64,000 bases of DNA from Sipunculus nudus (Eukaryota; Annelida; Sipuncula; Golfingiida; Sipunculidae). The notes under the pieces were generated by a model. It had not been told where the DNA came from. It saw only the letters and a list, made by a program, of their open reading frames with translations, and searched no databases. Positions 213 to 61,820 of the stretch are shown here, in pieces. The stretch's first letter is position 1; each line of letters begins with the position of its first letter. The position numbers were made by a program, and so were the translations under genes. Location: the NCBI GenBank assembly GCA_026874595.1, contig CM049309.1, forward strand, positions 92,526,723 through 92,590,722, read 5' to 3'.

Positions 213-2221
213 ACAAGGGACCTATGGGTCACGACGCTCAGCTGTTATATATGATAAAAAAATATTATTTAGAAATGAGGCACATGCTGGTTTTGTGTGG
301 AAATAAATATAAGCTGTATTATGAGTTGTTGTTGTTTAGCTTATGTATGATTTTGATAGTACCTTTGGAGACGGAAGAGGATTGATTTCATTTATTTTAT
401 TAACAAATGGAGTACTACTGTCACACAGATTTTGACTTGGCCATATAACTTATAAGCAGAACATATAATATAAGGGTTTAACTATTTATTAAAAAAATTA
501 CAAATATTGTCCCAAATATAATTTTTATTAAAAATAATAAGAGAATCATATGATTTTTTTAAATGAAATATAACTGATATGATTATTAAAATAATATTAA
601 AGAATATATTCATGAATGCATTCATGAATACATTTTGAAAGTATTTGCAAGAGTATTCATATACTTTCATTTTTTCCTGAATTCCCATTCTTTATGCAAG
701 AAATTTTATAATGGAGTACATAATCATATTCGTATTTAAATACAATTACAAAGTTGATGTTGAGAATCCAGAATATACAAAATTCACACATTTAAATAAT
801 GATCCTAAGTACCTGGTTTTATGGCTTTTATTTATATTAAAAAATAACTGTAAAAAATTCATTTAAGACTAATTTCACTTCAATGTACACACTAGACACA
901 GTAGGAATCTAGATTAATATTATCAACTGCATCTTTGTCTATCATTAATTTCCTTCATATAATCCCTAATGATTAGTAATGAATAATATGATTTACTTCT
1001 TTATCATTAAAATTGAACTGAAAAATGCCATAGGTGACTGCATGGTGTTATTTGGAATATGTGACATTCTACCCATCGATACAAGATTCTTATATCAGTA
1101 ACTGCAAGTTAATTTCCTGTTATTATAAACTAACAAGTTACATGGTGCTTGAAAACTTGATTAAAATCTACAGTTTTTGATCAACTGGTTTCAAATATTT
1201 GGTGTTAACAGATGAAATGCTAACAAAAACATGCTGTGAAGATTAAATCCACAGTACTTACAGGAAAAAACCTGCCATGGTCAAAGTTGGGCAAAATTTA
1301 AGGTACCAATTTTTTATTTTTATTAATATTTTTAAAAATTTAAAAGATTTTCATCTAATTTTGGGTATACAATTTAATTTTAATTAATTAAAGTTATATT
1401 ACTGGAAAAAAGGTCCATAGGTTTAACGTTTTTTGTGTTAAGTGATCAAATATCTTTCCTGATTTTTTTACAAAATGCATTATGTTTGGGCCCATAACTT
1501 TTTTAAATTAAATAATACAGACATAATTTCTAGCATGTACATAGGAACTATATAGAGGAATATTTATGGTAAATATTAAGGAAAACAGATAAGTGATTTT
1601 GATATAAGGCAGTCCTGAAGTGTGAAAATAGGTTTCAAATAAAAAATTGAGGTTTTTCCTTAATTTCTCAAAGGAACGAAGTTGCAAACACCCAGTTTTC
1701 GGCTTGGTAGGAGATTTTGGGGACATCTAACATTATGCCGAATTTTGGATTCCTAGGTCTGGACTAATACCTTTATTTCACATTCAAGGGAATAATACAT
1801 TTAAGTTTATATATTATTTAAGCATATCCACTTTTTCCATTAAAATAGTTTTTATCTGATTAATCTTTTTTATTTACAAGTTTTATACATTTGTATTAAA
1901 AAATCATTGAAAATATAAGTTAAAATATTAGAATTCTTAGTTGCAATCATTATACATCCAGAGTGTAGCTCGTATTGGGTCATATTATGCATACACATAT
2001 ATTTTTATTATTTTTAAATCACAAATTTTTAAACTGAATTTAAAAGAAAATAATGCCACAACATGGCATCTGCAAGATTATTCCTTGAATCACTATTAAA
2101 AGTTTTGCACATTGGAGTTTTCAGTACATGCTTAATCTTATTTACCAAAATAAAATATGATTCTGTAAATTTGGTAAAATAAAAACATCTTTTCAAATAA
2201 AGTATACACACTGTTGGTTGA

Positions 2222-2690
2222 ATGAGGGACAAACAATATCATTATGCTAATTACAATCTAAGCTTTAATTTATTCCTGGAATTAATAGTCAATTTCACAC
2301 CTGGTGAAGTTTTTACTCTTCTCAAGGAAGGAATTACTTATCTGATGAACATCCACACTTTCATAGCAATACACCACTTTGTGGACACAATTAAATGTGC
2401 ACTTTAATCATTGTAACCCTGGTGGTAAATACAAAATCTAAAATGTAGCATAGCCGAGAATAAAATGAAATACAGAAAATTATAACATTCATCTAGTTAA
2501 TGCATCATCTAGGGGGGGGCGGGGGTGTGTGCAGGGCAGAGGGGAAGCCTGCTAGTAGTGGCCCAGCTGAGCCAAGACAAGCTGCCTGGGGTGGGTTACA
2601 TAATGCAAGTGAAGGCTTTACTACTAGGTGGGCTAGATGTAAACAACACTTGACATGGTGTATGAAAACTTGAATAAAAGCTACTCTTTT
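2222..2690. repeat. Repeat segment shared with 36540-36672 plus 38661-38890
   Basis: Bases ~2341-2690 match 36546-36672 and then continue in 38661-38890. The copy here is uninterrupted, while the copy at 36.5-38.9 kb is split by element D5. This segment is therefore the empty-site paralogue that defines the ends of family D. It includes a G-rich tract near 2513-2526. Confidence 0.75.
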
Positions 2691-4024
2691 CAATCAATTC
2701 CTTTGAAATTTCAGATTTTAAAAGATTAAATACTTATGTATATATGCTGTGAAAATTAAATCAACAGTGCTTACAGAAAAAAAACATGCCATTGCCAAAG
2801 TTGGACAAAATTTAGGGTATTGATTTTTTATTTAAGCTAATAACTTGAAAAACTTGCAAAATTCAGATCTAATTTTGGGTAAACAATCGAATCTTGATTA
2901 AATAAAGTTATATTCCTGACAAAAAGTCTCCAGCTTCAGCAATTCTCATCTTAGGTGAGTAAATATATTTCTTGATTTTTAAAAAAGTGCATTATGTTTG
3001 GGCCCATAACTTAAAAAAAAATACACAATACTGACATCATTTCTGGCATGTGCATAGCGAATGTATAGAAAAATATGCATGTATATTATATATGATCGAA
3101 GTCAGATCAGTGGTTTTGATATTAGGCAGTCTTAAAGTGTAACAATGGGTTTTTAATGGAAAAATGAAGTTTTTCATTGACATCTCGAAGGAATTAAGTC
3201 CTAGTGACCAAATTCTTGGCATGTAGGGGATTTTGGAGAAATCTAACTGTATGCCAAATGTAAGGAACTTAGAGCTGAAGCTCGTGAGCTGAGCTCTAGC
3301 AAACTGCATAACACTAGCAATATGTGACATGGTGCTTGAAAACTTGAATAAAATCTACAGTTTTTGATCAACTGGTTTCAAATTTTTGGTGTTAACAGTT
3401 GAAATGCTAACAAAAACATGCTGTGAAAATTAAATTCACAGCAGTTACAGCAAAAAAATGTGCCATGGTCAAAGTTGGGCAAAATTTAAGGTACCAAATT
3501 TTTATTTTTGCTAATATTTTAAAAAATTTAAAAGATTTTGATCTAATTTTGGGTATACAATTTAATTTTGATTAATAAAAGTAATATTACTGGAAAAAAA
3601 GTGCTTAGCTTTAACAAGTTTTGTGTTAAGTGATAAAATTTCTTTCCTGATTATTTACAAAATGCATTATGTTTGGGCCCATAACTTTTTTAAATTATAT
3701 AATACAGACCTAATTTCTGGCATGTACATAGGAATTATATAGAGGATTATTTATAGGAAATATGAGGAAAAACAGATGAGTGGTTTTGATATGAGGCAGT
3801 CCTGAAGTGTGAAAATAGGTTTTTAATAAAAAATTGAGGTTTTTCCTTAATTTCTCAAAGGAATGAAGTCGCAAAGACCCAGTTTTCGGCTTGGTAGGAG
3901 ATCTTAGGGACATCTAACAGTATGCTGAATTTTGGATTCCTAGGTCTTACGGTTTCAAAACGTGCCAAATCTACGGACGGACGGAAGGACAGACAGACGG
4001 ACGACGGACAATGGACCACGACTA

Positions 4025-4059
4025 TAGCTCAGATGACTTATAGTCAGCTGAGCTAAAAA
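4025..4059 (+). other. Family A 3' terminal hairpin and A-tail
   Basis: Arms TAGCTCAGATGAC (4025-4037) and GTCAGCTGAGCTA (4043-4055) pair over 13 positions with one mismatch around loop TTATA, then the element ends AAAAA. A second copy with loop ATATA is at 4271-4301. Confidence 0.8.
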
Positions 4060-4307
4060 TTGAGGTTTTTCCTTAATATCTCGAAGGAGCGAAGTCCTAT
4101 TGACCCAATTTTCGGCATGGTAGGAGATTTTAGAGACATCTAACTGTATGCCAAATTTCAGATTCGTAGGTCCAACGGTGTCGAAACGTGCCAGTCTTAC
4201 GGATGGACATCCAGACGGATGGATGGACGGACAGACAGACGGACGGACGACAGACAATGGACCACGACTATAGCTCAGATGACATATAGTCAGCTGAGCT
4301 AAAAAAC

Positions 4308-7121: not shown

Positions 7122-7627
7122 GCAGTAGGCAAGGAGTGAAGGTGTTATGTAACAGCCTGGAACACTGTTAACCAATGACTTGATGTAAACATTCAAGACA
7201 TGGTGCTATAAATATGGGTCACTGTGCTCAGCTGAAGTTGGCCTTGAAGGTAAAAATCTAAAATAATAATGGAGATCAAGTCTAAGATGAAAAGGTAATA
7301 TATGCCATGGCTGGTTGACATGATTGGTTTGTATTGATGAGTGAGAAATTGTTGCAAATAATATTTTGTGACCAAACCATGCATTCTCTAATGTCAAAAT
7401 TGAAGCATGTGAGCAGTTTGTGAACATAAGATGTATATTATTACCATGATCATTGGCTGGCTTTTGGATAGTTTGTTGACAGTTCAGTAGTTTACACATT
7501 TTCTCAATTGGATCTATTTTACATAATATATATTATTAAATATATGTATTTTTATTTTATAAAATATATATAGTTGAAATATAACTGATGTCTCCAGTCC
7601 CCAGATGCAAGAACCTGGTGGTGGTGG

Positions 7628-7658
<31 letters not shown>

Positions 7659-8480
7659 GCTGGAATGATGGGAGTTACAACATCTCTGTATTAACATAGT
7701 GTATATACATATAGGATTTCCACTTAATTCAACAATACTTACAGGATTAAATAGTCCATTCACAATTACATAATATTTAAAAAAGGACAGACAGACTGTT
7801 AGACAAACAAAGCTGATAATATATTTTAATATTTTAAAGTTTTTCATCTGCAATATTACACATCTGAATACATAAGTTGCTTTCAAATTTCAGACTTTAA
7901 TGGCTTAAATCCATACACATACAGCATATGAAAGTTATTTCAACAGTGCTTAAAGGAAAAATTTCATAATTAGTATATATATTTAATGATAATTGAGAGG
8001 TGATGGACAGACAAGAGCTGATCACTTTATGTTCCATTCTCCTGGGGCAAGAATATGTTTCAATATTAGATCTTAATTTTTTCCAATCCAATTATCTTTC
8101 AAATTGAAAAAATTGTACACATTTGCAATATTAACTAATGTCCCAGTGCACAGGTGACGGTGAGGTGCTAAGGATCAATGACAGCCCGGGGGGGGGGGGG
8201 GGGGGGAAGAGATTGGATTAACAACACTTTTGCATAAACATTCAGGGCAAACAAAGCCTGATCTCCAATTCTGCTGAGGCTCGAAAATAATGAACACATG
8301 TTTGTATTAGATCCTCATTTTTTTATTTTAAGTTTAATTTGTATACATTTCCAATATAACATATATTTCTGAATATAAACGTTGATTCATAATTCTAAAT
8401 TGCATCATCATAAATCGCAATCTTGTCATGTAACACCACATCATGCATACAAATGTATATTTATATATTCATGGGGGGAG
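7122..8480. repeat. J modules with long poly-G tracts
   Basis: Two or three diverged modules of the same family follow one another. Bases ~7215-7620 match 56655-57060. Poly-G runs of about 30 nt (7630-7659) and 19 nt (8188-8206) sit at equivalent places in neighbouring modules. Bases ~8225-8470 match 59256-59520. This last segment lacks the TIR element found in the other copy and is its empty-site paralogue. Confidence 0.6.
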
Positions 8481-8690
8481 GGGGAGGGGGTGTGATATGA
8501 GAACAATTGTACACCTGTCACAGCAGGGGATCTCCCCCAGTGACTGAAACAAATCAGGAACCCTGGCATAGCTGACTTCCAGTGACCTGGAGTGGCCTAC
8601 CTGCATCTGGAACAAAGCAAGTGACTACAATAGACCCTCAAGATAAAATTCAATAACTATCCTAATTTTCAACCTTTTAGTTTCAAATTT
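8481..8690. repeat. Repeat L copy 2
   Basis: Bases ~8490-8635 match 73-210, beginning near TGTACACCTGTCACAG. It is again next to a G-rich tract (8473-8490) and family A modules, as in copy 1. Confidence 0.7.
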
Positions 8691-10810
8691 CAGATTTAAA
8701 CACATTAAATACTTATGTTTACATTCTGAGAAAATTAAATCAACAGTACTCACAGGGAAAAAATGTGCCATGGTCAAAGTTGGGTAAAATTTCAGGTACT
8801 GATTTTATGTTTATGCTAATAACTTATAAAATTTACAAAATACAGATCTAATTTTGGGTATACAATTGAATCTTAATTAAACAAAGTTATATACTTAAAA
8901 AAAATTCTCTAGCTTCAATAATTTTCATGAAACCTGAGTAAATATTTTTCCTGATTTTTTACAAAGTCAATTTTGTTTGGGCACATAACTTAAAACAATT
9001 ACGCAATACTGACATCATTTCTGGCATGTGCATAGCGAATGTATAGAAAAATATGTATATTATATATGATCAAAGTCAGATCAGTGGTTTTGATTCTAGG
9101 CAGTCCTGAAGTGTAACAAAGGGTTTTTAATGAAAAAATGAAGTTTTTCATTAATATCTCGAAGGAATTAAGTTCTGGTGACCAAATTCTTGGCATGGTA
9201 GGGGATTTTGGAGACATCTTACTGTATGCCTAATTTAAGGAACTTAGAGCTGAAGCTGGGGAGCTGAGCTCTAGCAAACTGCATAACACTAGGTTGATGT
9301 AAACAATATGTGACATGGTGCTTGAAAACTTGAATAAAATCTACAGTTTTTGATCAACTGGTTTCAAATTTTAAATGTTAACAGTTGAAATGCTAACAAA
9401 AACATGCTTTGAAAATTAAATCCACAGCAGTTACAGGAAAAAAACGTGCCATGGTCAAATTTGGGCAAAGTTTAAGGTACCAATTTTTTATTTTTGCTAA
9501 TATTTAAAAAAATTTAAAAGATTTTGATCAAATTTTGGGTATACAATTTAATTTTGATTAATAAAAGTTATATTACTAAAAAAAATGTGCTTAGCTTTAA
9601 CAAGTTTTGTGTTAAGTGATCAAATTTTTTTCCTGATTATTTACAAAATGCATTATGTTTGGGCCCATAACTTTTTTAAATTATATAATACAGACCCAAT
9701 TTCTGGCATGTACATAGGAACCATATAGAGGATTATTTATGGTAAATATGAGGAAAAACAGATGAGTGGTTTTGATATTAGGCGGTCCTGAAGTGTGAAA
9801 ATAGGATTTTAATAAAAAATTGAGGTTTTTCCTTAATTTCTCAAAGGAACGAAGTCGCAAAGACCCAGTTTTCGGCTTGGTAGGAGATCTTGGGGACATC
9901 TAACATTATGCTGAATTTTGGATTCCTAGGTCTTACGGTTTCAAAACGTGCCACATCTACGGACGGACGGACGGACGGACGGACGGACGGACGGACGGAC
10001 GGACGGACAGACGGACGGACGACGGACAATGGACCACGACTATAGCTCAGATGACTTATAGTCAGCTGAGCTAAAAATCAATAACTAGCTTAATTTTCAA
10101 GCTTTTATTTTCAAATTTCAGATTTAGACAAACTAATTATTTATGTTTAGATGCTGTGAAAATTAAATCAATGGTGCTTACAGGAAAAAACGTGCCATGG
10201 TCAAAGTTGGGCAAAATTTAAGGTACTGATTTTTTTTTATGCTAATAACTTAAAAAATTTACAAAATTCAGATCTAATTTTGGGTAAACAATTGAACCTT
10301 AATTTAACATAGTTATATACTTGAGAAAATAGACTCTAGTTTCAAAATTTTTCATGTTAAGTGAGATATTATTTTTCCAGATTTTTTACAAAGTCCATTA
10401 TGTTTGGGCCCATATCTTAAAGAATTTATACTTTACAGACTTAATTTCTGGCATGTACATAGTAACTATATAGAGGAATATTTATGGTAAATATGAGGAA
10501 AAACAGATGAGTGGTTTTGATATTAGGCAGTCCTGAAATGTGAAAATAGGATTTTAATAAAAAATTGAGGTTTTTCCTTAATTTCTCAAAGGAATGAAGT
10601 CACAAAGACCCAGTTTTCGGCTTGGTAGGAGATCTTGGGGACATCTAACATTATGCTGAATTTTGGATTCCTAGGTCTTACGGTTTCAAAATGTGCCACA
10701 TCTACGGACGGACGGACGGACTGACGGACGGACGGACGGACAGACGGACGGACGACAGACAATGGACCACGACTATAGCTCAGATGACTTATAGTCAGCT
10801 GAGCTAAAAA
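8691..10810 (+). mobile_element. Family A tandem modules with two complete 3' ends
   Basis: Three consecutive ~700-770-bp modules lie at ~8691-9240, 9300-10077 and 10078-10810, each containing variants of CGTGCCATGGTCAAAGTTGG and TGTTTGGGCCCATA. The second and third end in GGAC tandem repeats, the 31-nt hairpin (10043-10073; 10776-10806) and AAAAA. No 5' terminus of the ACAAGGG type lies at the left edge, so this block is truncated or continues the material at 7.2 kb. Reading frames rich in Arg-Pro-Ser-Val are translations of the GGAC repeats. Confidence 0.65.
9958..10020. repeat. GGAC tetranucleotide array
   Basis: About 14 near-perfect GGAC units sit just upstream of a family A 3' hairpin. 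Shorter versions occupy the same position in other copies (near 3975, 4215, 10706 and 39498), so the array is part of the element and varies in length. Confidence 0.85.
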
Positions 10811-11340
10811 TACATCAAGGTTATGCATGTTCAAACTTGACCTAGCCTTTGATAAGATGCATCAAACCTGTGGGTTTGGTTACTGTACCTCAAATTTTTG
10901 TGTTAACAAGTTATTGTGTTAACATCATTTTAACAAGAACAGGACACAAGGTGGTGCCACCTGTCTTCTGCAAAAGACAAAGCTATCAAAGATCTTCAGT
11001 CAATTTGATTTTTGGATCATTCCATGTATCCCTTACTGAGATATTAAAGATTTTGTGTGAATTTCACCAAATATAGGAGCTTCCACAGTGACGTCACAGC
11101 CCCCACTGCCTGCTGACAGCTGGAGGGCTGGTAGGCAAGACACTGAGCTGCTGACCCAGCCGACCATGTTTGCTGTATAGTGTTACACTATTGACTGGCC
11201 CTAACTGCTCTGCCTTTATCTTGGTTATTTCATAAGTTTTATGGTTAATTTCCATTTATAAAGTACTTCTCCAACCATTTAACATGCCCCAAAAGCATTG
11301 TTGCCATTGGCTTTGTCTCATCCAGAGATGATTTATTCGC
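10811..11340. repeat. Diverged family G/E core, then unassigned sequence
   Basis: Bases ~10930-11080 resemble 12985-13120, including a degraded core site AGGTGGTGCCACCT and TCTTCAGTCAATTTGATTTT. At ~11089 there is a perfect CRE-like TGACGTCA. The rest shows nothing recognisable. Confidence 0.45.
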
Positions 11341-12689: not shown

Positions 12690-13315
12690 GCTTGACACTG
12701 CAGTGGACAGGGTAGGCTTTTGCCTACCATCCAGTGCGCATGCGTGGGGATGGGGGCAAGTAAACAATAACAGTGGAAGCTCCTATAGGAATATTCAAGG
12801 TCAAGGCCACTCTCATAGGAAAGGTCATGACCCTAATTTAAATAAACATCATCCCATAACCCATTTCTATGTATATGCATAATAAAACAGAATCCGTCCA
12901 TTAGTTTTTGACTTATAATGCACAGTACTGTCAAGTGGCAATTTCGGGGGTATTAAAAGGCACGAAAACAAGTAAAGAATAATAGGTGGCGCCACCAGTT
13001 TCTGGAACATGACAACCCTATCCATGATCTTCAATCAACTTGATTTTGGGATCAATCCATGCAAGATTTCTTGAGATATTTAAGAATTTGTGTGATTTTC
13101 CCCAAAATTGGACCTATACACGGTCAAGGACACTCTAGTAGGTCATGACCTCGTTTTAAATAGGCGTCGTCCTCTCACCCATATCTATACATATGCCAAA
13201 TTTGGTAAAGATCCGTGAAATATTTTTTGAGTTATCGCGCCAACAAGATTTATATGCGGCGGCAGCGGGATCATCATGAAAACATAGTTTCCCCCGATTT
13301 TGTCTGGGGATACAA
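12690..13315 (+). mobile_element. Family E copy E1, 3' part
   Basis: The right end carries TGTCTGGGGATAC (13301-13313), the inverse of the family E 5' motif at 13789-13801, followed by AA. Upstream are a core site GGTGGCGCCACC (~12987) and a ~250-bp segment shared with 15925-16190. A stem GTAGGC/GCCTAC lies at 12712-12727. No matching 5' end (ACTAGAC) was seen, so the left part is lost or diverged. It is intronic relative to the minus-strand Ig gene. Confidence 0.5.
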
Positions 13316-13756: not shown

Positions 13757-15855
13757 ACTAGACATTTCTTGGCACCGCAGGTGCCAGAGTATCCCCAGAC
13801 ATAGTACGGCCCCCCTTTAAGAATAGGCCCCCATTTTTAGCAGCATATACTGACACTTGGCAAGCAATTATTGTTTCTTCCATCTATCAATCCACAATCT
13901 TTTTGAAGTCGTTGGTCCTGTGACCTTTACCTTTGACCTCGTGACCCGAAAATCAATTGGGGTCTTGCTTTTTCAATGGGACATATATAAGTCAAGTTTG
14001 AAATCTATACATCAATAACAGCAGGAATATCATCCAGAAACTAATTTTTGGACAGATGGCTCCGGTTGCCTTGACCTTTGAACTTGTGACCCCAAATTGA
14101 TATTGATCATCCACTTTTTCTAGATTTATTGATGGGCCATATATAAGTCAGGTTTGAAATCCATATATTAATCCAAGCTTGAATAATCATCTCGGGAACT
14201 AATTTTTGGACAGATGGCTCCTGTGACCTTCACCTTTGACCTCACAATTGACAGGCGTCTTCCTCTATTGGCAGGGGAACTCTATGTGCAAGATGAAATG
14301 TCTGAGATGAAATGTTTGGCTGAAAATGCATCCACAATCTTTAAAAAGATGTGTCCTGTGACCTTGACCTTTGACCTCATGAGCAAAAAATCAATTTGGG
14401 TCTTGCTTTTCCAATAGGACATATACAAGTCAAGTTTGAAATCTATACATCAATAAAAGCAGGAATTATCATCCAGAAACTAATTTTTGGACAGATGGCT
14501 CCTGTGACCTTCACCTTTAACCTTGTGACCTCAAAATTGATAGGGTTCTTCCTCTCTTGGCAGGTGAACTATATGTGCAAGATGAAAGATCTGAGATGAA
14601 ATGTTTGGCTGAAAATGCATCCACATCTTTTTAAAGATGTGTCCTGTGACCTTGACCTTTGACCTCATGAGCCAAAAATCAATTCTAGTCTTGCTTTTCC
14701 AATGGGACATATACAAGTCAAGTTTGAATTCCATACATCAATAAAAGCTGGAATTATCTTCTGAAACTAATTTTTGGACAGATGGCTCCTGTGACCTTCA
14801 CCCTTGACCTTAAGACCTCAAAATTGATAGGGGTCTTCCACTCTTGGCAGGTGAACTATATGTGCAAGATGAAAGATCTGAGATGAATTGTTTGGCTGAA
14901 AATGCATCCACAATCTTTTTAAAGTTGTGTCCTGTGACCTTGTCCTTTGACCTTTGCCCTCATGACCCCAAAAACAATTCCAGTCTTGCTTTTCCAATAG
15001 GTCATATACAAGTCAAGTTTGAAATCCATACATCAATAAAAGCAGGAATTATCCAGAAACTAATTTTTGGACAGATGGCTCCTGTGACCTTCACCTTTAA
15101 CCTTGTGACCTCAAAATTGATAGGGTTCTTCCTCTTGGCAGGTGAACTATATGTGCAAGATGAAAGATCTGAGATGAAATGTTTGGCTGAAAATGCATCC
15201 ACATCTTTTTAAAGATGTGTCCTGTGACCTTGACCTTTGACCTCATGAGCCAAAAATCAATTCTAGTCTTGCTTTTCCAATGGGACATATACAAGTCAAG
15301 TTTGAATTCCATACATCAATAAAAGCTGGAATTATCATCCAGAAACTAATTTTTGGACAGATGGCTCCTGTGACCTTCACCTTTGACCTTAAGACCTCAA
15401 AATTGATAGGGGTCTTCCACTCTTGGCAGGTGAACTATATGTGCAAGATGAATGATCTGAGATGAATTGTTTGGCTGAAAATGCATCCACAATCTTTTTA
15501 AAGTTGTGTCCTGTGACCTTGACCTTTGACCTTTGCCCTCATGACCCCAAAATCAATTCGGGTCTTGCTTTTCTTTAAGGTCATATACAAGTCAAGTTTG
15601 AAATCCATACATCAATAAAAGCAGGAATTATCATCCAGAAACTAATTTTTTGACAGATAGCTCCTGTAGCCTTGACCTTTGACCTTGTGACCCGAAAATT
15701 GATATGGATCATCAGCTATTGGCATGTGAGCTATATATTCAAGATGGAAGAGCTGGGATGAAAGTTTGGCTTAAAATGCATCCACAGTATCTTTTGAGAT
15801 GCGAGTCCAGTGACCTTGACCTTTGACCTCATGACCCTAGAAGCTATAGGGTTCT
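13757..15855 (+). mobile_element. Family E element with ~290-bp tandem core (5' end intact)
   Basis: The 5' end begins ACTAGACATT, then a hairpin GGCACC-GCA-GGTGCC (13771-13785) and GTATCCCCAGACA (13789-13801), the exact 13-nt inverse of the 3' ends of E1 and E2. The body is a tandem array with period about 286-296 bp, best seen at 14492, 14779, 15072, 15358 and 15654 (start CAGATGGCTCC). Most units carry TGACCTTGACCTTTGACCT, i.e. AGGTCA half-sites including a DR1 arrangement. No canonical 3' end follows. Coding potential is nil; the short frames repeat with the unit. Confidence 0.65.
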
Positions 15856-15859
15856 TACT

Positions 15860-16200
15860 TTAGTGGTGGGCCATACATAAGTCACGTTTGAAATCCATAT
15901 GGCTATCAACACTGGAGATATCAAAAGAGGTGTGTGATTTTCACCAAATGTGGACACATTAAAGGTCAAGGCCACTCTCATGGTAAAGGTCATGACCCAA
16001 ATGTAAATAGACCTCATCCCATAACCCATCTCTCTACATGTGCATAATATGAAAGAAATCTGTCCATTAGTTTTTGACTTATAATACTTACAGTACTGAC
16101 ATAGGCAATTATGGGGGTATTAAAAGGCGTAAAAACAAGAAAAGGATAATAGGTGGCGCCACCAGTTTCCAGTATATCACAAGGCTATCCAAGATCTTCC
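15860..16200 (+). repeat. Family G core segment
   Basis: Bases ~15925-16190 are a diverged copy of ~12780-13020 (shared TTAGTTTTTGACTTATAAT and ATAGGTGGCGCCACCAGTTT). The palindromic core site at ~16153 is intact. It follows the E array directly and may be its remodelled right part. Confidence 0.55.
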
Positions 16201-16487
16201 ACTACACCTTTCATATTTTCTTTCATGACTGAATTAAATAATATAATACAACCTGACACCGTTGAAATTAAAGCTCTGCAGCTGTTAAGGAAAATGTATC
16301 TCATGACACCATTAACATAGACAGCCTTCAAGAGGCCTGTATATCATCAGCTCCTTGATATCACTTGGCGGCTGTGTCACAGTCAGTTCAGTGGGCAATG
16401 CTTTCCATATGATACGGTTTTTCGGGTTAGATAAGACAAATCATGACTTTTTCATTATACTTATTTCATACTTGTATAAGTTTTAAC
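16201..16487. other. Unassigned intron sequence
   Basis: No repeat or gene recognised in this stretch. Confidence 0.5.
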
Positions 16488-16540
<53 letters not shown>

Positions 16541-16572
16541 TATTATGTAAATCTTTATATATACATATATAT

Positions 16573-16631
<59 letters not shown>

Positions 16632-16766
16632 AGCACAGAAACTGATTATTCCAAAATATATACATATCAAAATAATTAGAGCATATATGTGTTCATGCTT
16701 ATTTGGGTATGTATGTGTATATATTTATTATGTATAAATATTATATTATATATATTTACATATATG

Positions 16767-16814
<48 letters not shown>
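16488..16814. repeat. (TA)n microsatellites
   Basis: Three long TA runs (~16492-16535, ~16575-16627, ~16780-16812) are separated by AT-rich sequence. A small MITE has inserted at the end of the third. Confidence 0.9.
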
Positions 16815-16816
<2 letters not shown>

Positions 16817-17024
16817 GGGCGGATCCAGGATTTAGGAAAAGGGGGGTCCAACCCAGGAGGACTAATGAAAATCCTTTAAAAAGGTCATTAGGTCCGGAAA
16901 AGGGGGGGGGGGTCCAAGCCGCAAAATATCGTCTAAAACCCTTTAAAAAAAGTTGCTTTGGGTGAAAAAGGGGGGGGGGGGGGGGTTCGGACCCCCTGTA
17001 CCCCCCCCTCTGGATCCGCTTCTG
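16815..17024. mobile_element. ~210-bp MITE with GGATCC-containing terminal inverted repeats
   Basis: The left end AGGGGCGGATCCAG and right end CTGGATCCGCTTCT form imperfect 14-bp inverted repeats. The interior has two G-rich stretches reading like imperfect internal repeats. It sits in a TA microsatellite, with TA-rich sequence on both sides, which obscures the target duplication. The class is unresolved; a TA-targeting family would fit. Confidence 0.65.
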
Positions 17025-18685
17025 TATATATATGTGTATATACACACATATATCTCTAAACACAAAAGCACAAAAAATTTTTATTCCACATTTGATATAT
17101 CAAAATAATAAAACATGTATATGTACATGTTCATCTATGTATGTATGTATATATAATAAAAAAAATATCATAATACAAAATTTAATACAGTAACAATACA
17201 TATATATATATATAAATATCATTTAATAAAATTATATATATTAATATATATAATAGTCGGTGTAATAATATTGATTATAGCCTGTTTTAAATATATCAAT
17301 AAATTTGGATTATAATTCTACATTGATTTCAAGAACAATAATCTTGAATTTCCATACCCTTCTAATACATCATGCATAATAAAAAATGGTATACATTATT
17401 AATTCTATACTGTATTACCGGGCCATATAAGTTGTTTTTTCTTTAATGATCAATTCCACCAATTGTGGTGTTGTGTAGGTCATGTAGAACTAGGAACAAA
17501 TTGATACTAATGTAAAAAATCAGTCATATCTTACTCCATGATTTAATTATAATAAGACTTGATGCCAACTGTAACTATAAGATCTGACAATGAATGATAT
17601 TGTGAATACCTGTTATCTTTTTATGTAGCGAACTTATTGGTGACATATATTCGGATTGTATTGACGAATATAACATTATTTTTATTCCAAAATAAAGGCA
17701 TAATAATTTATATTATAATGTGAATGCAGTTTAATATTTCGATGGTCATTAATTCAAAGTTTATGCTAAAACACATTAGACTGGTTTCAAGAGAAAGATA
17801 TAAGATGTTCATTATTTCGAGATAACCAAATAATGACAGATCATTATAAATATTCTCAAAGAGAGTGTATGAATGAGTATTTTCAAACACTATACTAAAC
17901 TATTAGTTTTGGATCTCTTCATATATAATATTTATTCACGTCATCAGAAAATCCATAGAGAAATTATATTTCAGAAGAGTGACATATTATTTTATATTAT
18001 ATTATATCGTAAAAACTTAATACAACATTTTCCTTTACTTATATTTATATTGCTTAACACTGTTCGGCAGTGAACATCACAATTGTCTTGGTAATATTTC
18101 TAATTTAACATTAAATTCAACTGTGTATGCTATATATAATAATACAGCTTGAGTCAGGCAACAAGGCGAAGCCCATCATAAACAAATGTGTCCCGTCTGA
18201 CCGGTCTAGCCAAATGTTCGGACATTTCTTTCAAACCATTATGAAAAGGGCCTAATCACGTGCCTTTGATGTTAGAGAATAAAATTTGCCATATTCTGTT
18301 TGTGAGGCTGGCAGAGTTCTAAGAAGAAATTAAGTTTATTTGTTAAATATATTTAAGAAATAGCTTAATGAAAAATAGGTGCGCTATGAAACAACAACAT
18401 ATATACAGAATACGATACAAAATTATAACCAAAAATTAATGGCAGACTGTGTAAATACCATGTACCACGTCGGACCCACCGTGCGTTTGCGTGATTCCCT
18501 TCACTGTGAAACAATTTCAACTTTAATGAATTATACTCGTGTCTTCCTATCATTTATATTATTTTGTTTTTGGTACAAAAATGTATGCAAAGAATCATGT
18601 AAAGTTTTTTTTGTATATTATTTCATTACATATAATAATAGGCCCCTTTGAAGCATTTTCTTACCAGACTATGATATGTATGTTA

Positions 18686-18689
<4 letters not shown>
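17025..18689. other. AT-rich intron sequence
   Basis: AT-rich, single-copy-looking DNA inside the Ig-gene intron. I found no exon with paired splice sites and no similarity to the repeat families elsewhere in the window. Small open frames are consistent with chance. Confidence 0.55.

Positions 18690-18752
<63 letters not shown>
18690..18752. repeat. Compound (AT)n(GT)n microsatellite
   Basis: An AT run of about 28 bp passes directly into GT repeats (18719-18752). Confidence 0.9.
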
Positions 18753-19215
18753 ATCCAACATTGAAAGTTTTATTAAAGCCTTTAAATGTTACCAGATGCA
18801 TGATCATCAGCATTTAATAAGCTGCATGATCCGACAGGATGTCCGTGTGTCATGAATCCTCTAAAAGACCGACATGAGTAATCATGGTGTAAAGTCTGCT
18901 GTTAAACCTCAGATGAAATGTAAATGTATCACAAGACCACGGCCTGGACATCTTGTCAATGTTAAGGAGATGTGACCGACATGCATACCAGACCATAACA
19001 GATACGCTATACTTGCCCAGCCACTGACTGACAGATGATGGATATCTTCCCATTAAAGCTAAATTTGGTCATAACATCATGGGCTTAACCTACTTTTAGT
19101 TATACTTGTTGGAATGGAATGTTAATTTAGACCAGTATCGTGTTTATTTAATCCAAAAAAGGTGTAAACTTTTCAATATTATTACATACTTAACACCGTA
19201 TTCAAAGCGCACACG
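18753..19215. other. Unassigned intron sequence
   Basis: No gene or repeat family recognised. Confidence 0.5.
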
Positions 19216-19531
19216 TGCTACTGTTTACTCGCCAACCGGAAGTAAACAAAGTTTTCATCCGGGGCCCTCACTTCCATATAAGCCAAACCGTGTTTCTGTG
19301 TATTTGTGTTATTTTCACAAAAAATGGACCTATTCAAGGTCAAGGTCACTCTTCTAGCAAAGGTCATGACCCCATTTTAAATAGGCTTTGTCCCCTTACC
19401 TTTATCTATACAAATGTAAAGTTTGAAAAAGATCAGTGAAATATTTTTAGAGTTATCCCGCTCACAAGGTTTTTCTGGGGCGGCGGGACCGTCGTGAAAC
19501 CATAGTATCCCGACTTTGTCTGGGGATACAA
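19216..19531 (+). mobile_element. Family E copy E2, 3' part
   Basis: The segment ends TGTCTGGGGATAC (19517-19529) plus AA. Upstream it shares GGTCATGAC, a CGG-rich stretch and CATAGTATCCC with E1 and with family D tails. The 3' hairpin pairs GTATCCC with GGGGATAC (one bulge). The left boundary is uncertain and no 5' terminus was found. Confidence 0.55.
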
Positions 19532-38660: not shown

Positions 38661-39571
38661 TAAAATACAGAAAATCATAACATTCATCTAGTTTATGCAC
38701 CAGCTGGGGGGGGGGGGGGGGGGAGTGCAGGGCAGAGGGGAAGCCTGCTAGTAGTGGCCAAGCTAAGCCAAGGCAAGCTGCCTGGGGTGGGTTACATAAT
38801 GCAAGTGAAGACTGTATTACTAGGTGGGCCAGATGTAAACAACACTTGACATGGTGTATGAATACTTGAATAAAAGCTACTCTTTTCAAACAATTCCTTT
38901 GAAATTTCAGGTTTTAAAAGATTAAATCCTTATGTATATATGCTGTGAAAATTAAATCAACAGTGCTTACAGGGAAAAAACGTGCCATTGCCAAAGTTGG
39001 ACAAAATTTAAGGTATTGATTTTTTATTTATGCTAATAACTTGAAAAATTTGCAAAATTCAGATCTTATTTTGGGTAAACAATTGAATCTTGATTAAATA
39101 AAGTTATATTCCTGAAAAAAGTCTCCAGCATCAGCAATTCTCATGTTAAGTGAGCAAATATATTTCCTGATTTTTAAGAAACTGCATTATATTTGGGCCC
39201 ATAACTTCAAAATAATACCAAATACTAACCTAATTTTTGGTATGTGCACAGAAAATGTATGGAAAAATAAGAATACTAAATATGATCAAAAACAGATCAG
39301 TGGTTTTGATATTATGCAGCTTTGAAGTGTAACAATGGCTTTTTTATGGAAAATGGAGGTTTTTCCTTAATATCTCGAAGGAAGGAAGTCCCAATGACCC
39401 AATTTTCAGTATGGTAGGAGATTTTGGGGACATCTATTGGTATGCAGAATTCTGGATTCTTAGGTCCAACGGTTTTAAAACGTGTCCTGTTAACGGACGG
39501 CCGGACGGACGGACGACAGACAAAGGACCACAACTATAGCTCAGATGACTTATAGTCAGCTGAGCTAAAAA
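38661..39571 (+). mobile_element. Repeat segment right part and family A 3' module
   Basis: Bases 38661-38890 complete the repeat split by D5 (poly-G 38706-38723). Bases ~38900-39571 are a family A module ending in GGAC repeats, hairpin 39537-39567 and AAAA. Confidence 0.7.
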
Positions 39572-47928: not shown

Positions 47929-47932
47929 CAAA

Positions 47933-50014: not shown

Positions 50015-50024
50015 AAGGAGGGGG
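50015..50024 (+). promoter_or_regulatory. Polypurine tract
   Basis: AAGGAGGGGG three bases before the 3' LTR, the expected position for plus-strand priming. Confidence 0.85.
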
Positions 50025-50027
50025 TAT

Positions 50028-52740: not shown

Positions 52741-52744
52741 ATAT

Positions 52745-53182: not shown

Positions 53183-54356
53183 TGTATCCGCCAAAACAGA
53201 GTTTTGCGGATACTATGTTTTCAGCCCACCGCCGCCGCCGCCACCACGTAGGTGTCCGAAAAACTCCTCCGTAACCGCTGGGCGGAATTTTACAAACCCG
53301 GGATTATGTTCGGGTCACATGTGAACTGCTGCGCCCAGATTTTGTTTTGACCTCTGACCTTTCCTCTGCGCTCTGCGTCCGTTTGTGCGTCTGTTTCCAC
53401 ACATTAACCCACATATCTCGGGAGCCGTTTGACGGATCAGGAAAATTTTTTTGCACAAATGTAGCCATTGGAGAGCTTTATAACATACACAAAAAATGGT
53501 GGCGCCACCTGCAACCATGTTTGCACAGTGTCCATCTGTTCGTCTGCCTTGGTTTAAAATCACTCATATCTCTGCAGTGGTTTGACTAATTCACCTGAAA
53601 TTCGGCATGTGTATACATCCTGGATAGCTTTTCTGATTTTATGACAGGTGGCGCCACCTACATTCACATTTACGCTGCAGACATCCAAGCTCATATCTCA
53701 GGAACCGTTTGACCGATTGGGCCAAAATTTTGCATGTGTATAGATCTCACATAGCTCTTTATCATAGCAAAACTGGTGGCGCCACCTGCAGCCATTTTTG
53801 CACAGCTCCCGTCTGTTTGTCTGCCATGGGATAAAATCACTCATATCTCGGCAGTGGTTTGACATATCTGCCTAAAATTTTGCAGGTTTATACATCCCCC
53901 AAAGCTCTCTTGATTTTATGACAGGTGGCGCCACCTACATTCTAGTTTATGCAGCAGATATCCGAGCTCATATCTTGGGAACCGTTTGACCGATTGGGCC
54001 AAAGTTTGGCATGTTCTCACACAGCTCTTTATCATACGCAATACTGGTCGCACCACCTGCAACCACTTTTGCACAGCGTCCATCTGTTTGTCTGCCAAGG
54101 GCAAAAATCACTCATATACATGTAGTGGTTTGACTTGGTCTGCCTTAAATTTTGCTTATGTATACAACTTGGACGGCTTTCTGGATTTTGTGGTAGGTGG
54201 CGCATCCTACATACACAATTTGGCTGCAGACATCCATGCTAATATGCAACACTTCACTCTATTTCCCCTTGCCACTCAATCCATGCCTCACTTCACCCGT
54301 TCCACTCTGATTCAAGTGAATACACGTAGTCACTTGTCGACTACCCGTATTCTAGT
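53183..54356 (-). mobile_element. Family D element D6, inverted
   Basis: Minus-strand copy: the 5' end ACTAGAATACGGGTAG lies at the right (54356 leftward) and the 3' end GGCGGATACAT at 53183. It contains three to four perfect GGTGGCGCCACC sites. This is the only D copy opposite to D1-D5. Confidence 0.8.
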
Positions 54357-54376
54357 TAGACAGATATACATGTATA

Positions 54377-55170: not shown

Positions 55171-55174
55171 TATA

Positions 55175-56640: not shown

Positions 56641-57071
56641 ACAAGGGACCCATGGGTCACTGTGCTCAGCTGAAGTTGACCTTGAAGGTAAAAATCTAAA
56701 ATAATATAAAATGGAGATAAAGTCTAAGGAAAAGGTAATATAGACTATGGCTGGTTGACATGATTGGTATGTATTGATGAGTAAGAAATTGTTGCAAATA
56801 ATATTTAGTGACCAGACCATGCATTTCCTATGTTGAAATTGAAGCATGAGAGAAGTTTGTGTACATGAGGTGTACATATTATTACCATGATCACTGGTTG
56901 GCTTTTTGATAAATTGTTGACAGTCAAGTAGTTTCCACATCTGTTCAATTGGATCTATTTTTTTTTATAATATATATTATAAGATATATGTATTTTTTAT
57001 TTTATAAAATCTATTAAGCTGAAATATAACTTATATCCCCAGTCCAGGGATGGTGGAATTTTGCATATACA
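56641..57071 (+). mobile_element. Family A-type 5' end with J module, left of P2
   Basis: It starts ACAAGGGACCCATGGGTC, the family A start with a perfect GACCCATGGGTC palindrome, then GTGCTCAGCTGA. The following ~400 bp match 7215-7620. The module is cut by P2 and resumes at 59263. Confidence 0.65.
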
Positions 57072-59262
57072 TGTCAGAGACGAGATTGAAATCCAGGCCG
57101 ATTTTAAATTCGCCTAGACGAGATTGCGATTGTGATCTCGCCTAGGCAAGATTGCAATTGTGATCTCGGCTAGACGGATTTTAAACTCACCTAAACGAGA
57201 TCACAATCACATTCTCGCCTAGGCGAGATTAAAATCCATCATGGAGCAGGCCAGGATTTTAATCTCGCCTAGGCGAGTTTAAAATCCGTCTGGTGTCATC
57301 CAGGCGAGTTTAAAATCTGCCTGATATTACTTAGGCGAGTTTAAAATCTGCCTAGGCGAGATTAAAATAGTGATCTGATCTAATTTCCTAATATATAAAG
57401 CATTGTAATTGATATATGAAAGATGTTTTCAGTCGGATTTTCAATATTTTAACACTGAATGGTTATATATAGTTAAAAGGTAATATATTTATTAATATTT
57501 ACAGAATATTATAGTATTAATGTTATAATTAACTCTTTACAGTAATGTAATAATTATTCATGTGATAATTAACATTAATTTTGGAAACAGAATTATGAAA
57601 TAGATATTTGATTATTATTTGCACCTTTGATGTGTTTCATGTGGTCTACAGCATCCTTATCATACCAATTATTTGCTTAACATTAATTAATCTTTATTTT
57701 TTTTCTCCAGTTTTCTTAACAACCTTGTGATTGTAAATATCACTAATAATTTTTACAAAAAATAATTTGTAATTGTTTTTAAATATATGGCAATTAGAGA
57801 GTAACAAGAGGTATATTGAAGCACACTTATGAGATATTATGAAGAGCAAATCTGGGGGAAAAAGTCATCCACTTGCATATTGAATCAATCATAAATAGAT
57901 AGATAGACAAATAGATAGATTAGTCTAGATAGCTATTACTTCACTATTTAATGAGTATATTACACATTAACATAAACAATCATCCTATTTGATAATTCTT
58001 ACAGGACAAACAGAACAAATTAGTTGGTTGATCTAGTTCAAATGTTTCTTTTTACCCAGGTATTCAACACTCAACAGTCAAAACATGTACACTTATGGTA
58101 CAAAATATGCAGGGTATCAGTATTTATGATGGACTTTGATACACCATCCTTTTTTTTTGGTAATTAAACATCATATGAGAAAAGGTAAAAGTTGATACAC
58201 AGATGTATGCATGTGAATATTTCTTTGTCTTATTTAGTCTTTTCTTATAATGTATATAATATTCTTCTGATCTTTTTTTTAATGTTTTGTGAGGCATTTT
58301 GTGAAGCTTCAATGTTTATGTAGACTGTGTTACAATTAAGATAACTGCCTTTTTTTGGACAGTATTATATCATATCAGAAAAAATATGATTTCTAGATTC
58401 ATAGAGTAATAGATCATTTATGTATGTGAACATGCATTGAATTATATTGATAAAAAATAAATGAGCTATGTTTCTTTTGTCTTTTTAAAATACTACATTA
58501 CTATTATACTAATACCAGTTTCCCTTCAAATTAATAATGACAACAAAATTATTATGTAAATAATCAGCAGCAGCCCACATCATATATCATTTGAATATGC
58601 CACATACAATACCAATGTAAGTTTCTTATTACCTAGTTTATAAATAAAAATATAAAATAAAAAAAATTATGTTAATTACTACATAAATATTATAATATTC
58701 TGTAAATACATGTATTTTTAGATATATATTACTTGTGAACTATACATTACCATATTAATAAAAAATATATAATATAAAATATTCTATTTCCAAAATTAAT
58801 GTTAATTATTACTTTTATAAAATAATATTCTGTAAATATTAATAAATATATTACTTGTGAACTATACATAACCATTCATTGTTAAAATATTGAAAATCTG
58901 ACTGAAAACATCTTTCATAAGTCAATTACAATGCATACTTTATTGGGAAATTAGATCAGATCACTATTTTAATCTCACCTAGGCAGATTTTAAACTCGCC
59001 CAAGTGATATCAGGCAGATTTTAAACTCGCCTGGATGACACCAGACAGATTTTAAACTCGCCTAGGCGAGATTAAAATCCTGGCCTGCTCCATGATGGAT
59101 TTTAATCTCGCCTAGGCGAGATTGCGATTGTGATCTCGTCTAGGCGAGTTTAAAATCCGTCTAGCCGAGATTACAATTGCAATCTCGCCTAGGCGAGATC
59201 ACAATCGCAATCTCGTCTAGGCGAATTTAAAATCCGCCTGGATTTCAATCTCGTCTCTGACA
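57072..59262. mobile_element. Element P2: long-TIR element built from nested palindromes
   Basis: The ends TGTCAGAGACGAG / CTCGTCTCTGACA are inverted over roughly 450-550 bp (about 57072-57600 and 58790-59262). TACA is duplicated outside (57068-57071; 59263-59266). The outer ~300 bp of each arm consists of repeated CTCGCCTAGGCGAG palindromes alternating with TTTAAAATC and GATTGCGATTGTG. The ~1.2-kb AT-rich centre contains a small GATA repeat (57896-57922) and no open frame of note. Family 8.2 kb provides the empty site. Same superfamily as P1 by ends and by the GATTGCGAT motif. Confidence 0.85.
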
Positions 59263-60115
59263 TACATACTGGGCAAACAAAGCCTCATCTCCAATTCTGC
59301 TGAGGCAGGAATAATGAACAAATATTTGTATTAGATCATTTTTTATGACATCAATTTTTTATTTAAAGTTTATATTTCTATACATTTCCAATATAACATA
59401 TATATCTGAATCTAAAAGTTTATTCATAATTCTAAATAGCATCATCATAAATCTCAATCTTGTCAGATATATACCACATCATGCATACAAATGTATATCT
59501 ATTTTTTATTATTTTAACACAGAAATATATCTTTTAAATTTGCAAAAAAATAAATATCTAAAAAAATATTTCATTCAGATTTCACATTTACTTCATATTT
59601 AATCAATATATGTGTCGAGGGAAGAATGAGAATCTGGGAAGATCAGAGAAAATAATGGGAATTCCCATTCTTCCCGGGAAAAATCATAATCATTTCATAC
59701 TATGATTTGATTCTCATTTTACTTGTTCTCATTCTTCCCGGGAAAAACCAGAATTCTTATTTTTCCCAGCCAGCTCCAATTTTTTAAATGATATCCTTTT
59801 AATAGTTAAGGTGGGTTAAGTTTGCATATTTTACTACGGTATTATAACCAAATTTTTGTGTTATTAACTGACTATTGCTTAAAGAACAGTAACATTTTTT
59901 GTCATGAAAAAAAAGTAGAAAACCCATTTCTGTTAAAATCAGTTTTATTCACACATGATAGTACTAAACCCATGTTAGTTGAAAACAACCACACCTGATA
60001 TTTACATATTAGTTCTTAGCACACATGATTCAATTATAAAGATTTCTAAAAGTGAATATTTTTAATCTACAATTCAGTAAAAATAAACATCTATGTTAGA
60101 TTGACTAAGTATTAA
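59263..60115. repeat. J-type module right of P2, then palindrome-rich unique sequence
   Basis: Bases ~59267-59520 match ~8247-8475. Around 59640-59770 TTCTTCCCGGGAA occurs twice beside GGGAATTCCC. No gene. Confidence 0.6.
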
Positions 60116-61820
60116 ACTAGATGTGTCGGAACGACACGAATGCCCCCGCCTGGGGCATATTAGAAACATTTGTTAAATTTTGTAAAATTTTTTAAGTTCA
60201 GGAAGTGTTGTATGGTCCAAAGTAGGTCAACAAGGGCAAAATGCAAACTCGATCTGTAAAGGGTCATTATCAAGCAACACACCAAAAATCAGGCCAGTAT
60301 CTGCAGGTATTGTGAAAAAAAGTCCATATATGTGCATTTTTCATGAAAATTTCTGTCTTTCATGAAATTTTCTATGTTCAGGATCTGTCATATGGTGAAA
60401 AATAGGTTAACTGGGACGAAACGCGAACTCGATCTGTAAGTGGTCATTATGCGCCCACAGACCAAACATTAGGCCAGTATCTGTGAGCATTGCATTGCGA
60501 AACTAGAATATTAGCAAAAGTTGATAATCATTTATAAATTTAAATTGTAGAGGTATATACCATGTTTCATAACAATCCACCAAATGCTTCCTGAGAAATA
60601 AGCTCCTAAGTTTTTTTCTATACTAAGCTCTGTGACCTTGAAAAGTAGGTCAAGATCACCCATCTTTGAACTTGACCAAGATTTTGTAAATATAATGCAA
60701 TAGCACTGAAGAAATGAAGTTCCTGTGTTGAATACTTTTAGAGATATCCTGCACAAAAGGCCATAATTGAAAAAATCCGATAAAATTTCATGAAAAAATC
60801 AGAAATTGCAGGTGGCGCCACCAAAATTGTGCAGCACATACAGACCATCAGTCCCAATGATCATAGTAAGTTTTGTGAAAATCCACACAATGGTTCCTGA
60901 GATATAAACTTCTGAGTGTTTTTCTATAATCAGCTCTAAAATGTAGAAAATGGGTCAAGGTCACCCATCTTCGAACTTGACCGAGATTTTATTGATATAC
61001 ATCTTCACTGATGAAACAAAATTCCAATGGTGAATCCTTTTAGAGATATCCCGAGCACAAGGTAAAAGTTAACAGATGCGGAACGGACAGACGGACGGAC
61101 AAACACCGGACAGACAGATGGACAGACGGACAGCTTGGGTGACGACAATAGCCCATCAGCCTATGAGCTGAGGGCTAAAAACAGCTGTACATGTGTATTT
61201 GTCATGAAAATTTCTATTTTTCATGAATTTTTCTAAGTTTAGGAGCCGTAAAACGGTCAAAAGTAGGGCAACCGGGACGAAACGCGAACTCGATCTGTAA
61301 CTGGTCATTATCTGCCCACACACCAAAAATCAGGCCAATATCTGCAGGCATTGCGAAAAAAGTCCGTACATGTGTATTTGTCATGAAAATTTCTATTTTT
61401 CATGAAATTTTCTAAGTTTAGGAGCCGTAAAACGGTCAAAAGTAGATCAACAGGGACGAAACGCGAACTCGATCTGTAACTAGTCATTATCTGCCAACAC
61501 ACCAAAAATCAGGCCAATATCTGCAGGCATTGCCAAAAAAAGTTCGTACATGTGTATTTGTCATGAAAATTTCTATTTATCATGAAATTTTCTAAGTTTA
61601 GGAGCTGTAAAACGGTCAAAAGTAGGTCAACCGGGACGAAACGCGAACTCGATCTGTAACTGGTCATTATCTGCCCACACACCAAAAATCAGGCAAATAT
61701 CTGCAGGCATTGCGAAAAAAAGTCCGTACAACTGTTTGATTTCGGAATGACGGAATGACAGAATGACGGACATGGGTAAAACTATATGCCCCGGCCACTT
61801 TGTGGCGGGGGCATAAAAAA
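60116..61820 (+). mobile_element. Family B element B2, interrupted by element C
   Basis: It starts ACTAGATGTGTCGG and ends in the family B hairpin (TATGCCCCGGCCAC / GTGGCGGGGGCATA) plus A6, as in B1. Tandem ~180-bp core units are clear at 61188, 61367 and 61547. Element C (60502-61181) lies inside one unit. Confidence 0.8.
60502..61181 (+). mobile_element. Element C, nested in B2
   Basis: It starts ACTAGAATATTAGC and ends with hairpin TAGCCC-A-TCAGC / GCTGAGGGCTA (61149-61177) and AAAA. Inside are one GGTGGCGCCACC (~60812) and GGAC-type repeats near 61090-61125. Its flanks rejoin into a family B unit without duplication beyond ambiguous A residues. Confidence 0.75.

What the first reader, a model, noticed from the sequence alone, without database searches (positions are those of the whole stretch)
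213..61820. A convergent set of hairpin-ended mobile families sharing one architecture (A, B, D, E)
Four families differ in sequence but share: start ACTAGA (B, D, E; also C) or ACAAGG (A); a 5' mini-hairpin; a subterminal motif that is the exact inverse of part of the 3' end (A 9 nt, B 11, D 11, E 13); tandem cores of about 150-290 bp (long modules in A); a 3' terminal hairpin; and an A-rich right edge. Known non-autonomous Helentrons (HINEs, e.g. DINE-1; pearl and DTC84 in bivalves) have subterminal inverted motifs, internal tandem repeats and a 3' hairpin. Several coexisting families with different hairpins suggest parallel specificities for one or several rolling-circle enzymes.
Basis: partly seen in the sequence, partly recalled or inferred. 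Interest (0 to 1): 0.85.

Follow-up and report, generated by a model that had tools for sequence, protein, structure and literature searches.

The report
Rolling-circle jumping DNA, read backwards

Summary
Families A, B, D and E have a hairpin at each end, a 9-13 nt inverted motif shared by the two ends, and tandem cores. The orientation is inverted. Read on the opposite strand they follow, block for block, published non-autonomous Helentrons (HINEs/Helitron2): T-rich flank | 5' subTIR inside a terminal hairpin - (A, D, F, N) GTCC microsatellite - tandem core - 3' subTIR - palindrome - CT[A/T]G | TT. Three comparisons inside the window, made by eye, show no target duplication beyond 0-2 T. Genome-wide, 5,316 of 5,437 exact B 3' ends continue with TT. 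A second Helentron clade with the same end anatomy but other sequences was found de novo. No autonomous partner was found for B, D or E; only 10 of 143 Rep loci were read. Convergence is not shown. Known kind; whether these families are already catalogued could not be checked.

The parts
213..4306 (-). Family A HINE (HINE 5' end at 4301, a second stacked 5' end at 4055; 3' end ...CCCTTG|TT at 214)
   Evidence: 9-nt subTIR GCTCAGCTG exact
7213..10811 (-). Family A' copy, 3' tip degenerate, stacked 5' ends at 10806 and 10073
   Evidence: 7314-7496 is 75% identical to the 3' part of the Rep-bearing element at C7:71189229
12780..13313 (-). Family E fragment with HINE 5' end (inner border approximate)
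13757..19529 (-). Family E: 3' end at 13757, 288-bp array 14138-15834, 5' end at 19529; 16205-19290 is foreign to the shorter copy (insertion, capture, or two truncated copies)
   Evidence: 13-nt subTIR
21728..22933 (-). Family D HINE (D1), 180-bp array
   Evidence: 11-nt subTIR
23104..25118 (-). Family B 3' end and core (B1) joined near 24180 to a family G 5' end (25118): chimera or two truncated copies
26736..29508 (-). Family F HINE (157-bp array), inserted in a 43-bp satellite array
   Evidence: similar to the 5' 0.9 kb of the C17 Helentron, 70-82% in stretches of 60 nt or more
31301..32482 (-). Family B HINE (B2)
32492..34010 (-). Family B HINE (B3), about 10 bp from B2
34635..36345 (-). 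Family B HINE (B4), exact subTIR
36673..38660 (-). Family B HINE (B5), exact 11-nt subTIR; empty paralogous site near 2441-2500
38680..39568 (-). Family A 5' end fragment (inner border approximate)
53183..54356 (+). Family B HINE (B6), opposite strand
56641..57074 (-). Family A' 3' end, interrupted by a long-TIR element
60116..61815 (-). Family D HINE (D2)
60503..61177 (-). Element N nested in a D2 monomer
61904..64000 (-). Family A HINE, 3' end inside, runs off the window

Best explanation
The families are HINEs: non-autonomous Helentron/Helitron2 elements copied by a Rep (HUH nuclease)/PIF1-helicase/endonuclease protein made elsewhere in the genome. Proposed cycle: the enzyme nicks at the T-rich 5' flank; one strand is peeled off; copying ends at the 3' palindrome just before CT[A/T]G|T, where the 3' subTIR can pair with the 5' subTIR and open the 5' hairpin; the single strand is then put into a TT site without target duplication. 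Shown here: the end anatomy, the TT sites, no duplication beyond 0-2 T in three comparisons, and for A/F a 14.9-kb element with the same ends and a long open Rep/PIF1 frame. Inferred: the nicking, strand peeling and pairing switch; that this element or a relative moves the window copies (its frame may be damaged at the endonuclease end); and that B, D and E use such an enzyme too.
For: End anatomy; 6 non-spurious descriptor hits in the window against 1 in 40 shuffles together. Same block order as published HINE/Helitron2 descriptions. TT after CT[A/T]G in fetched DNA: B 10 of 10 (4 were fetched with TT in the pattern), D 4 of 4, A/F 7 of 7, E 1 of 1, P 8 of 9 (several P ends lie in one array); genome-wide for B 5,316 of 5,437. 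B 15,973 and D 4,822 3' ends at up to 3 mismatches, reversed controls 0. A/F element C17:35640364-35625479: 14.9 kb, 11-nt subTIR, ends ...CACTTG|TT, 2342-aa frame with Helitron_like_N, PIF1 and Exo_endo_phos (the last at 21.0 bits, below its 24.5 cut-off), Rep motif RGSPH. F resembles its 5' 0.9 kb, 70-82% in stretches of 60 nt or more. A second clade: 25.5-kb Helentrons with a 13-nt subTIR found de novo. None of the 143 Rep matches listed lies in the window (150 of 195 candidates were scored), so the window copies are non-autonomous.
Against: Exact head-to-tail B junctions, which rolling-circle read-through could leave, number 1 in the genome, and that one joins two different B subfamilies. 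The element boundary within the T run is not resolved: a TT duplication cannot be told from T carried by the element. F has an imperfect and N no recognised 3' subTIR. B and E have a GCC-rich stretch rather than the GTCC microsatellite. The C17 frame lacks the SDH stretch at its end that a close relative (C13:9109249) has. An RPA gene, typical of many Helentrons, was not looked for.
Confidence: 0.92

Rival explanations
1. Convergence: the families arose independently and acquired the same architecture by selection from one or several rolling-circle enzymes.
For: A, D and P ends share little primary sequence, and two Helentron clades with different ends coexist.
Against: By eye, B and E 5' ends align almost throughout (TTGTATCC...GGATACTATG.TTTCA), A and F share the same 5' end, and A, B, D, E and F have a TAT-containing stretch just after the hairpin. 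Descent with paired changes explains this at least as well. No tree or statistical test of the ends was made.
Confidence: 0.25
2. Retroposons (SINE/LINE-like) read in the reader's orientation, with an A-rich 3' tail and a terminal hairpin.
Against: Both flanks are alike: in HINE orientation a T precedes each intact 5' end and follows each 3' end in the fetched set. No duplication beyond T; the inverted subTIR is unexplained; a Rep/Hel gene lies between A/F ends.
Confidence: 0.02
3. MITEs of a DDE DNA transposon with a 2-bp TT duplication.
For: A TT duplication cannot be excluded inside T runs; DINE-1 was once called a MITE (paper).
Against: One inverted motif is clearly subterminal, hairpins lie at both ends, and a Rep/Hel gene lies between A/F ends. 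I did not search the genome for DDE genes between B, D or E ends.
Confidence: 0.04
4. One enzyme (the A/F clade Helentron) moves all families, reading shape rather than sequence.
For: The same two-part hairpin, mostly with a 3-nt loop, recurs with different sequences.
Against: The second clade carries its own, different ends, which suggests matched specificities; swapping the Helraiser hairpin for another Helitron's cut activity to the level of hairpin deletion (passage).
Confidence: 0.2

Closest known systems
Cg_HINE elements of Crassostrea gigas, with pearl/CvE, MgE and DTC84 of bivalves (PMC7492417: Results and part 1 of 2 of the Discussion read)
   Same: 5' subTIR plus complementary IR, microsatellite often GTCC/GTCY, central tandem repeats of 138-181 bp, 3' subTIR plus palindrome, T-rich sites, no duplication
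   Different: Sequences could not be compared (figures and supplements not held). Here some monomers reach 280-288 bp, and a Rep-coding element with the same ends is found for one lineage, which that paper could not do for its families
DINE-1 of Drosophila (PMC2374699: passages)
   Same: 13-bp subTIR 0-2 bp from the 5' end, partial IR beside it, GTCY microsatellite, 3' stem-loop, TT insertion
   Different: Other sequences and host; several families coexist here
Helentron / Helitron2 (PMC4067079: Results parts 1-2 of 3 and Discussion read; PMC3627910: passages)
   Same: Rep with RGSPH, PIF1, C-terminal endonuclease; ATIR pair; hairpins at both ends; RepHel antisense to the ends in some families, as in the P clade here
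   Different: 3' tips here read CTAG or CTTG before TT; the P clade is 25.5 kb long
Canonical Helitron1 / Helraiser (PMC4778049: passages)
   Same: 3' palindrome a few nt before CTAG
   Different: No 5' TC, TT instead of AT sites, 5' hairpin and subTIR present

Membership tests
HINE (non-autonomous Helentron) | subTIR of about 9-15 bp at both ends, 5' copy at the tip, 3' copy internal | tested here: met
   A 9, B 11, D 11, E 13 nt exact in at least one copy or pairing; F has a mismatch, N none recognised
HINE (non-autonomous Helentron) | 5' subTIR followed by its inverted repeat (terminal hairpin) | tested here: met
   one of two E 5' ends and G are degenerate
HINE (non-autonomous Helentron) | palindrome downstream of the 3' subTIR | tested here: met
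   A, B, D, E, F; not seen in N
HINE (non-autonomous Helentron) | TT target, no target duplication | tested here: met
   a TT duplication is not excluded
HINE (non-autonomous Helentron) | GTCY microsatellite near the 5' end | tested here: inconclusive
   present in A, D, F, N and the C17 Helentron; GCC-rich stretch instead in B and E
HINE (non-autonomous Helentron) | no Rep/Hel coding, central tandem repeats | tested here: met
   Pfam was run on 6 window ORFs
HINE (non-autonomous Helentron) | same ends as a Rep/Hel/endonuclease element in the genome | tested here: met
   A/F only, endonuclease match below cut-off; not shown for B, D, E
Helentron (C17 element) | Rep motif with S (RGSPH) and PIF1 helicase | tested here: met
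Helentron (C17 element) | C-terminal endonuclease domain | tested here: inconclusive
   Exo_endo_phos 21.0 bits, cut-off 24.5; frame end differs from that of relative C13:9109249
Helentron (C17 element) | RPA gene | not tested
   -
Canonical Helitron1 | 5' TC, insertion between A and T, no 5' hairpin | tested here: not met

The most novel reading that the evidence does not exclude
The 5' hairpin carries a built-in defect (bulge or mismatch after a 6-8 bp outer stem; 8 of 10 hairpins folded) that the 3' subTIR does not share: in 7 of these 8 the 3' motif matches the 5' arm across the defect. The end-to-end duplex is predicted more stable than the hairpin in 8 of 9 hairpins with a 3' motif (exception F; one P hairpin was given its neighbour's 3' motif, and the E motif comes from the one E pairing). 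So the end of a copied strand could displace the hairpin and mark the stop point. This sharpens the switch that Bao and Jurka suggested (PMC3627910, passage). One P hairpin without defect is a counter-example, and the hairpins are partly related.
Probability: 0.25. Interest if true: 0.55.

Novelty: new member of a known kind. Interest (0 to 1): 0.4.

Why it matters
Partners of HINEs are known in mite, mosquito and flies, but the oyster study read here could not tie its HINEs to an autonomous Helentron. Here one lineage (A/F) is tied by its ends to a Rep/PIF1 element in the same genome, and a second clade with its own matched ends is described. This makes "which enzyme reads which ends" a direct test, in a genome where one family alone has about 16,000 3' ends.

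Tried and rejected
Viral contigs: no hit for the B and D hairpins. Concatemers as proof of rolling-circle read-through for B: one junction genome-wide, between two subfamilies, rejected. Exact P-family head-to-tail junctions occur twice in one C11 array, but insertion into the TT next to an older copy gives the same letters, so I do not use them as proof. The 7-bp flanking repeat TTTTATT at B5 was considered as a target duplication. The paralogous empty site near 2441-2500 differs from the filled one by two T and a few substitutions, while a 7-bp duplication would need an extra 5-bp deletion; rejected (by eye). The B-like 5' end in the C3 locus was first taken as the end of a coding element; that stretch matches a B HINE, and the C3 element has a P-type 5' end (its 3' end was not found). 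One tally script had faulty patterns for B, A/F and E and returned 0 for them; redone, whose A/F pattern still misses the F end (seen).

Not done for lack of answers: counts of A and P 3' ends, of a third T after B ends, and of GGTGGCGCCACC genome-wide.
Full report
What is there. The window lies in a 1.43-Gb genome of 153 contigs, at C4:92526723-92590722. A protein search with the Rep/helicase part of the C17 element gave 1,373 matches at E up to 1e-30, of which 120 are listed; 27 listed rows name an organism, 20 of them bivalves (Saccostrea, Mytilus, Argopecten, Pinctada, Crassostrea, Ruditapes), the best-scoring named one a hemichordate. The host is probably a bivalve; I did not identify it. 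About 46% of the window is made of the elements in question, by hand-drawn intervals.

Orientation. Read on the other strand, B is GTATCCGC-C-AAAAC AGA GTTTT-GCGGATAC ... 280-bp monomers ... GGCGGATAC AA GTAGTCG CTTGT CGACTAC CCGTATT CTAG | TT, and D, A, E and F have the same order of parts. That is the order published for DINE-1, Helitron2, Helentron HINEs and Cg_HINE: subTIR at the 5' tip with its own inverted repeat, microsatellite, central repeats, 3' subTIR, 3' palindrome, T-rich insertion (PMC2374699 and PMC3627910 passages, PMC4067079 and PMC7492417 sections).

Chance. A mechanical descriptor found 7 places in the window and 1 in 40 shuffles together; one of the 7 is AT-rich and taken as spurious. 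Genome-wide, a 29-nt B 3' end occurs 15,973 times and a 34-nt D 3' end 4,822 times at up to 3 mismatches, with none for the reversed controls.

Insertion. Three comparisons exist in the window, made by eye. B5 sits in a sequence whose empty paralogue lies near 2441-2500; F sits in a 43-bp satellite array; N sits in a D monomer. The filled sites have 2, 2 and 0 more T than the empty ones (F and N against typical monomers, which vary), with no other duplicated bases (sequence; flanks). After the terminal CT[A/T]G comes TT in 5,316 of 5,437 exact B ends and in 30 of 31 ends tallied in fetched DNA (B 10, of which 4 were fetched with TT; D 4; A/F 7; E 1; P 8 of 9). Before the 5' ends, fetched DNA shows TT in B 8 of 9, A/F 8 of 8, P 3 of 3, E 2 of 3, D 3 of 5 and N 1 of 1; the odd matches of D (2) and E (1) are inner motifs, not ends.

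Autonomous partner. A scan with the Helitron Rep family gave 143 matches among 150 scored candidates (195 in the first look). I fetched 20 kb around 10 of them, 40 kb in all for two of these and 12 kb more for a third. The C17 locus holds a 14.9-kb element with A/F ends: 5' TTTTTAGCTCAGCTGACTGAAAGTCAACTGAGCTC, 3' GTCAGCTGAGCATCATGACCCATGGGTCACTTG|TT, 11-nt subTIR, and a 2342-aa open frame in HINE orientation. Pfam, run on the frame in two pieces, finds a tegument-N-like region, DUF6570, Helitron_like_N, PIF1 and, at 21.0 bits against a cut-off of 24.5, an endonuclease domain; the helicase part matches Pif1 structures and Helraiser (7lcc). The frame's end differs from that of a 93% identical relative, so this copy may not be fully active. 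The 10 Rep genes read all have the S in RGSPH that Thomas et al. give as a Helentron mark. The window's F element resembles this element's first 0.9 kb (70-82% in stretches of 60 nt or more), and the A' 3' region is 71-75% identical over 180-190 nt to that of another Rep-bearing element, which ends in an A-type 3' end; its 5' end was not seen. A second clade, read at 40 kb in two places, is 25.5 kb long with other ends (GCTTGCCGGAAATC TTC GATTTCCGCAAGC ... ATTTCCGGCAAGCGCGTGACCTCTGGTCATCTTG|TT) and its Rep gene antisense to the ends; two further members show the same 5' end. Antisense Rep genes are on record for some Helentrons and Helitron2 elements.

What is not settled. No partner for B, D or E was found, and only 10 of 143 Rep loci were read. 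Convergence is not shown: B and E ends, and A and F ends, look homologous by eye; no tree was made. Head-to-tail B junctions are essentially absent (1). The exact cut within the T run is open. Whether these families are already in a repeat catalogue could not be checked.

A possible switch. In 8 of 10 hairpins folded the stem has a defect (4 bulges, 4 mismatches) at the joint of outer and inner stem; N has its bulge on the other arm, and one P hairpin has none. In 7 of the 8 the 3' motif matches the 5' arm across the defect (not F). In 8 of 9 hairpins with a 3' motif the 5':3' duplex is predicted more stable than the hairpin (DNA parameters, two-strand energies on short pieces, so only indicative; one P hairpin was given its neighbour's 3' motif). 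Bao and Jurka proposed that this pairing opens the 5' hairpin at the end of a round. A conserved defect would help, but the sample is small and partly related.

Verdict. Members of a known kind, HINEs/non-autonomous Helentrons, with the orientation corrected and a Rep-coding partner by ends found for one lineage.

Noticed in passing
10950, 12985, 16152, 23408-23966, 24618, 31450-38332, 53498-54196, 60811; also the C17 Helentron (L022), positions 359 and 1067 of the element: The 12-nt palindrome GGTGGCGCCACC (52 places at up to 2 mismatches, one of them in the LTR element; 0-2 in 10 shuffles) recurs in the cores of otherwise unlike HINE families and in the 5' repeats of the A/F Helentron, but not in the 25.5-kb P Helentron. 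The string is in one paper of the held library, unrelated by its listing.
   Followed up: partly
14365-15817, 27305-29185 and other cores: AGGTCA/TGACCT half-sites are about four times as common as in shuffles (123 against about 29); family F has 8 GGTCANNNTGACC, the E array TGACCTNTGACCT repeats. They resemble nuclear-receptor sites (recalled); tandem copies are not independent.
   Followed up: partly
39648-52741: Gypsy-type LTR retrotransposon, recent by its LTRs: 2717-bp repeats, 99.7% identical; gag, protease, RT, RNase H and integrase domains.
   Followed up: partly
57075-59260 and 54373-55171: Two elements that look to have terminal inverted repeats (by eye), the second with a 28-bp array inside; the first interrupts a family A copy.
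   Followed up: no
23104-25118: B 3' end joined to a G 5' end, as if two HINEs had been fused.
   Followed up: no
16205-19290: 3.1 kb inside E that a shorter E fragment (12780-13313) lacks: insertion, capture, or two truncated copies.
   Followed up: no
4055/4301 and 10073/10806: Two HINE 5' ends stacked one behind the other at the 5' side of two family A copies.
   Followed up: no
L031/L032 (C11:50366000-50405999): Exact head-to-tail joins CATCTTG|TT|GCTTGCC, twice, in a P-family array around a 25.8-kb Helentron.
   Followed up: partly
13408-13562: A minus-strand frame reads like an immunoglobulin-type domain exon (by eye, no call), so the window may lie in a host gene's introns.
   Followed up: no
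5920-7121: Tandem duplication of 601 bp, 98.5% identical.
   Followed up: no
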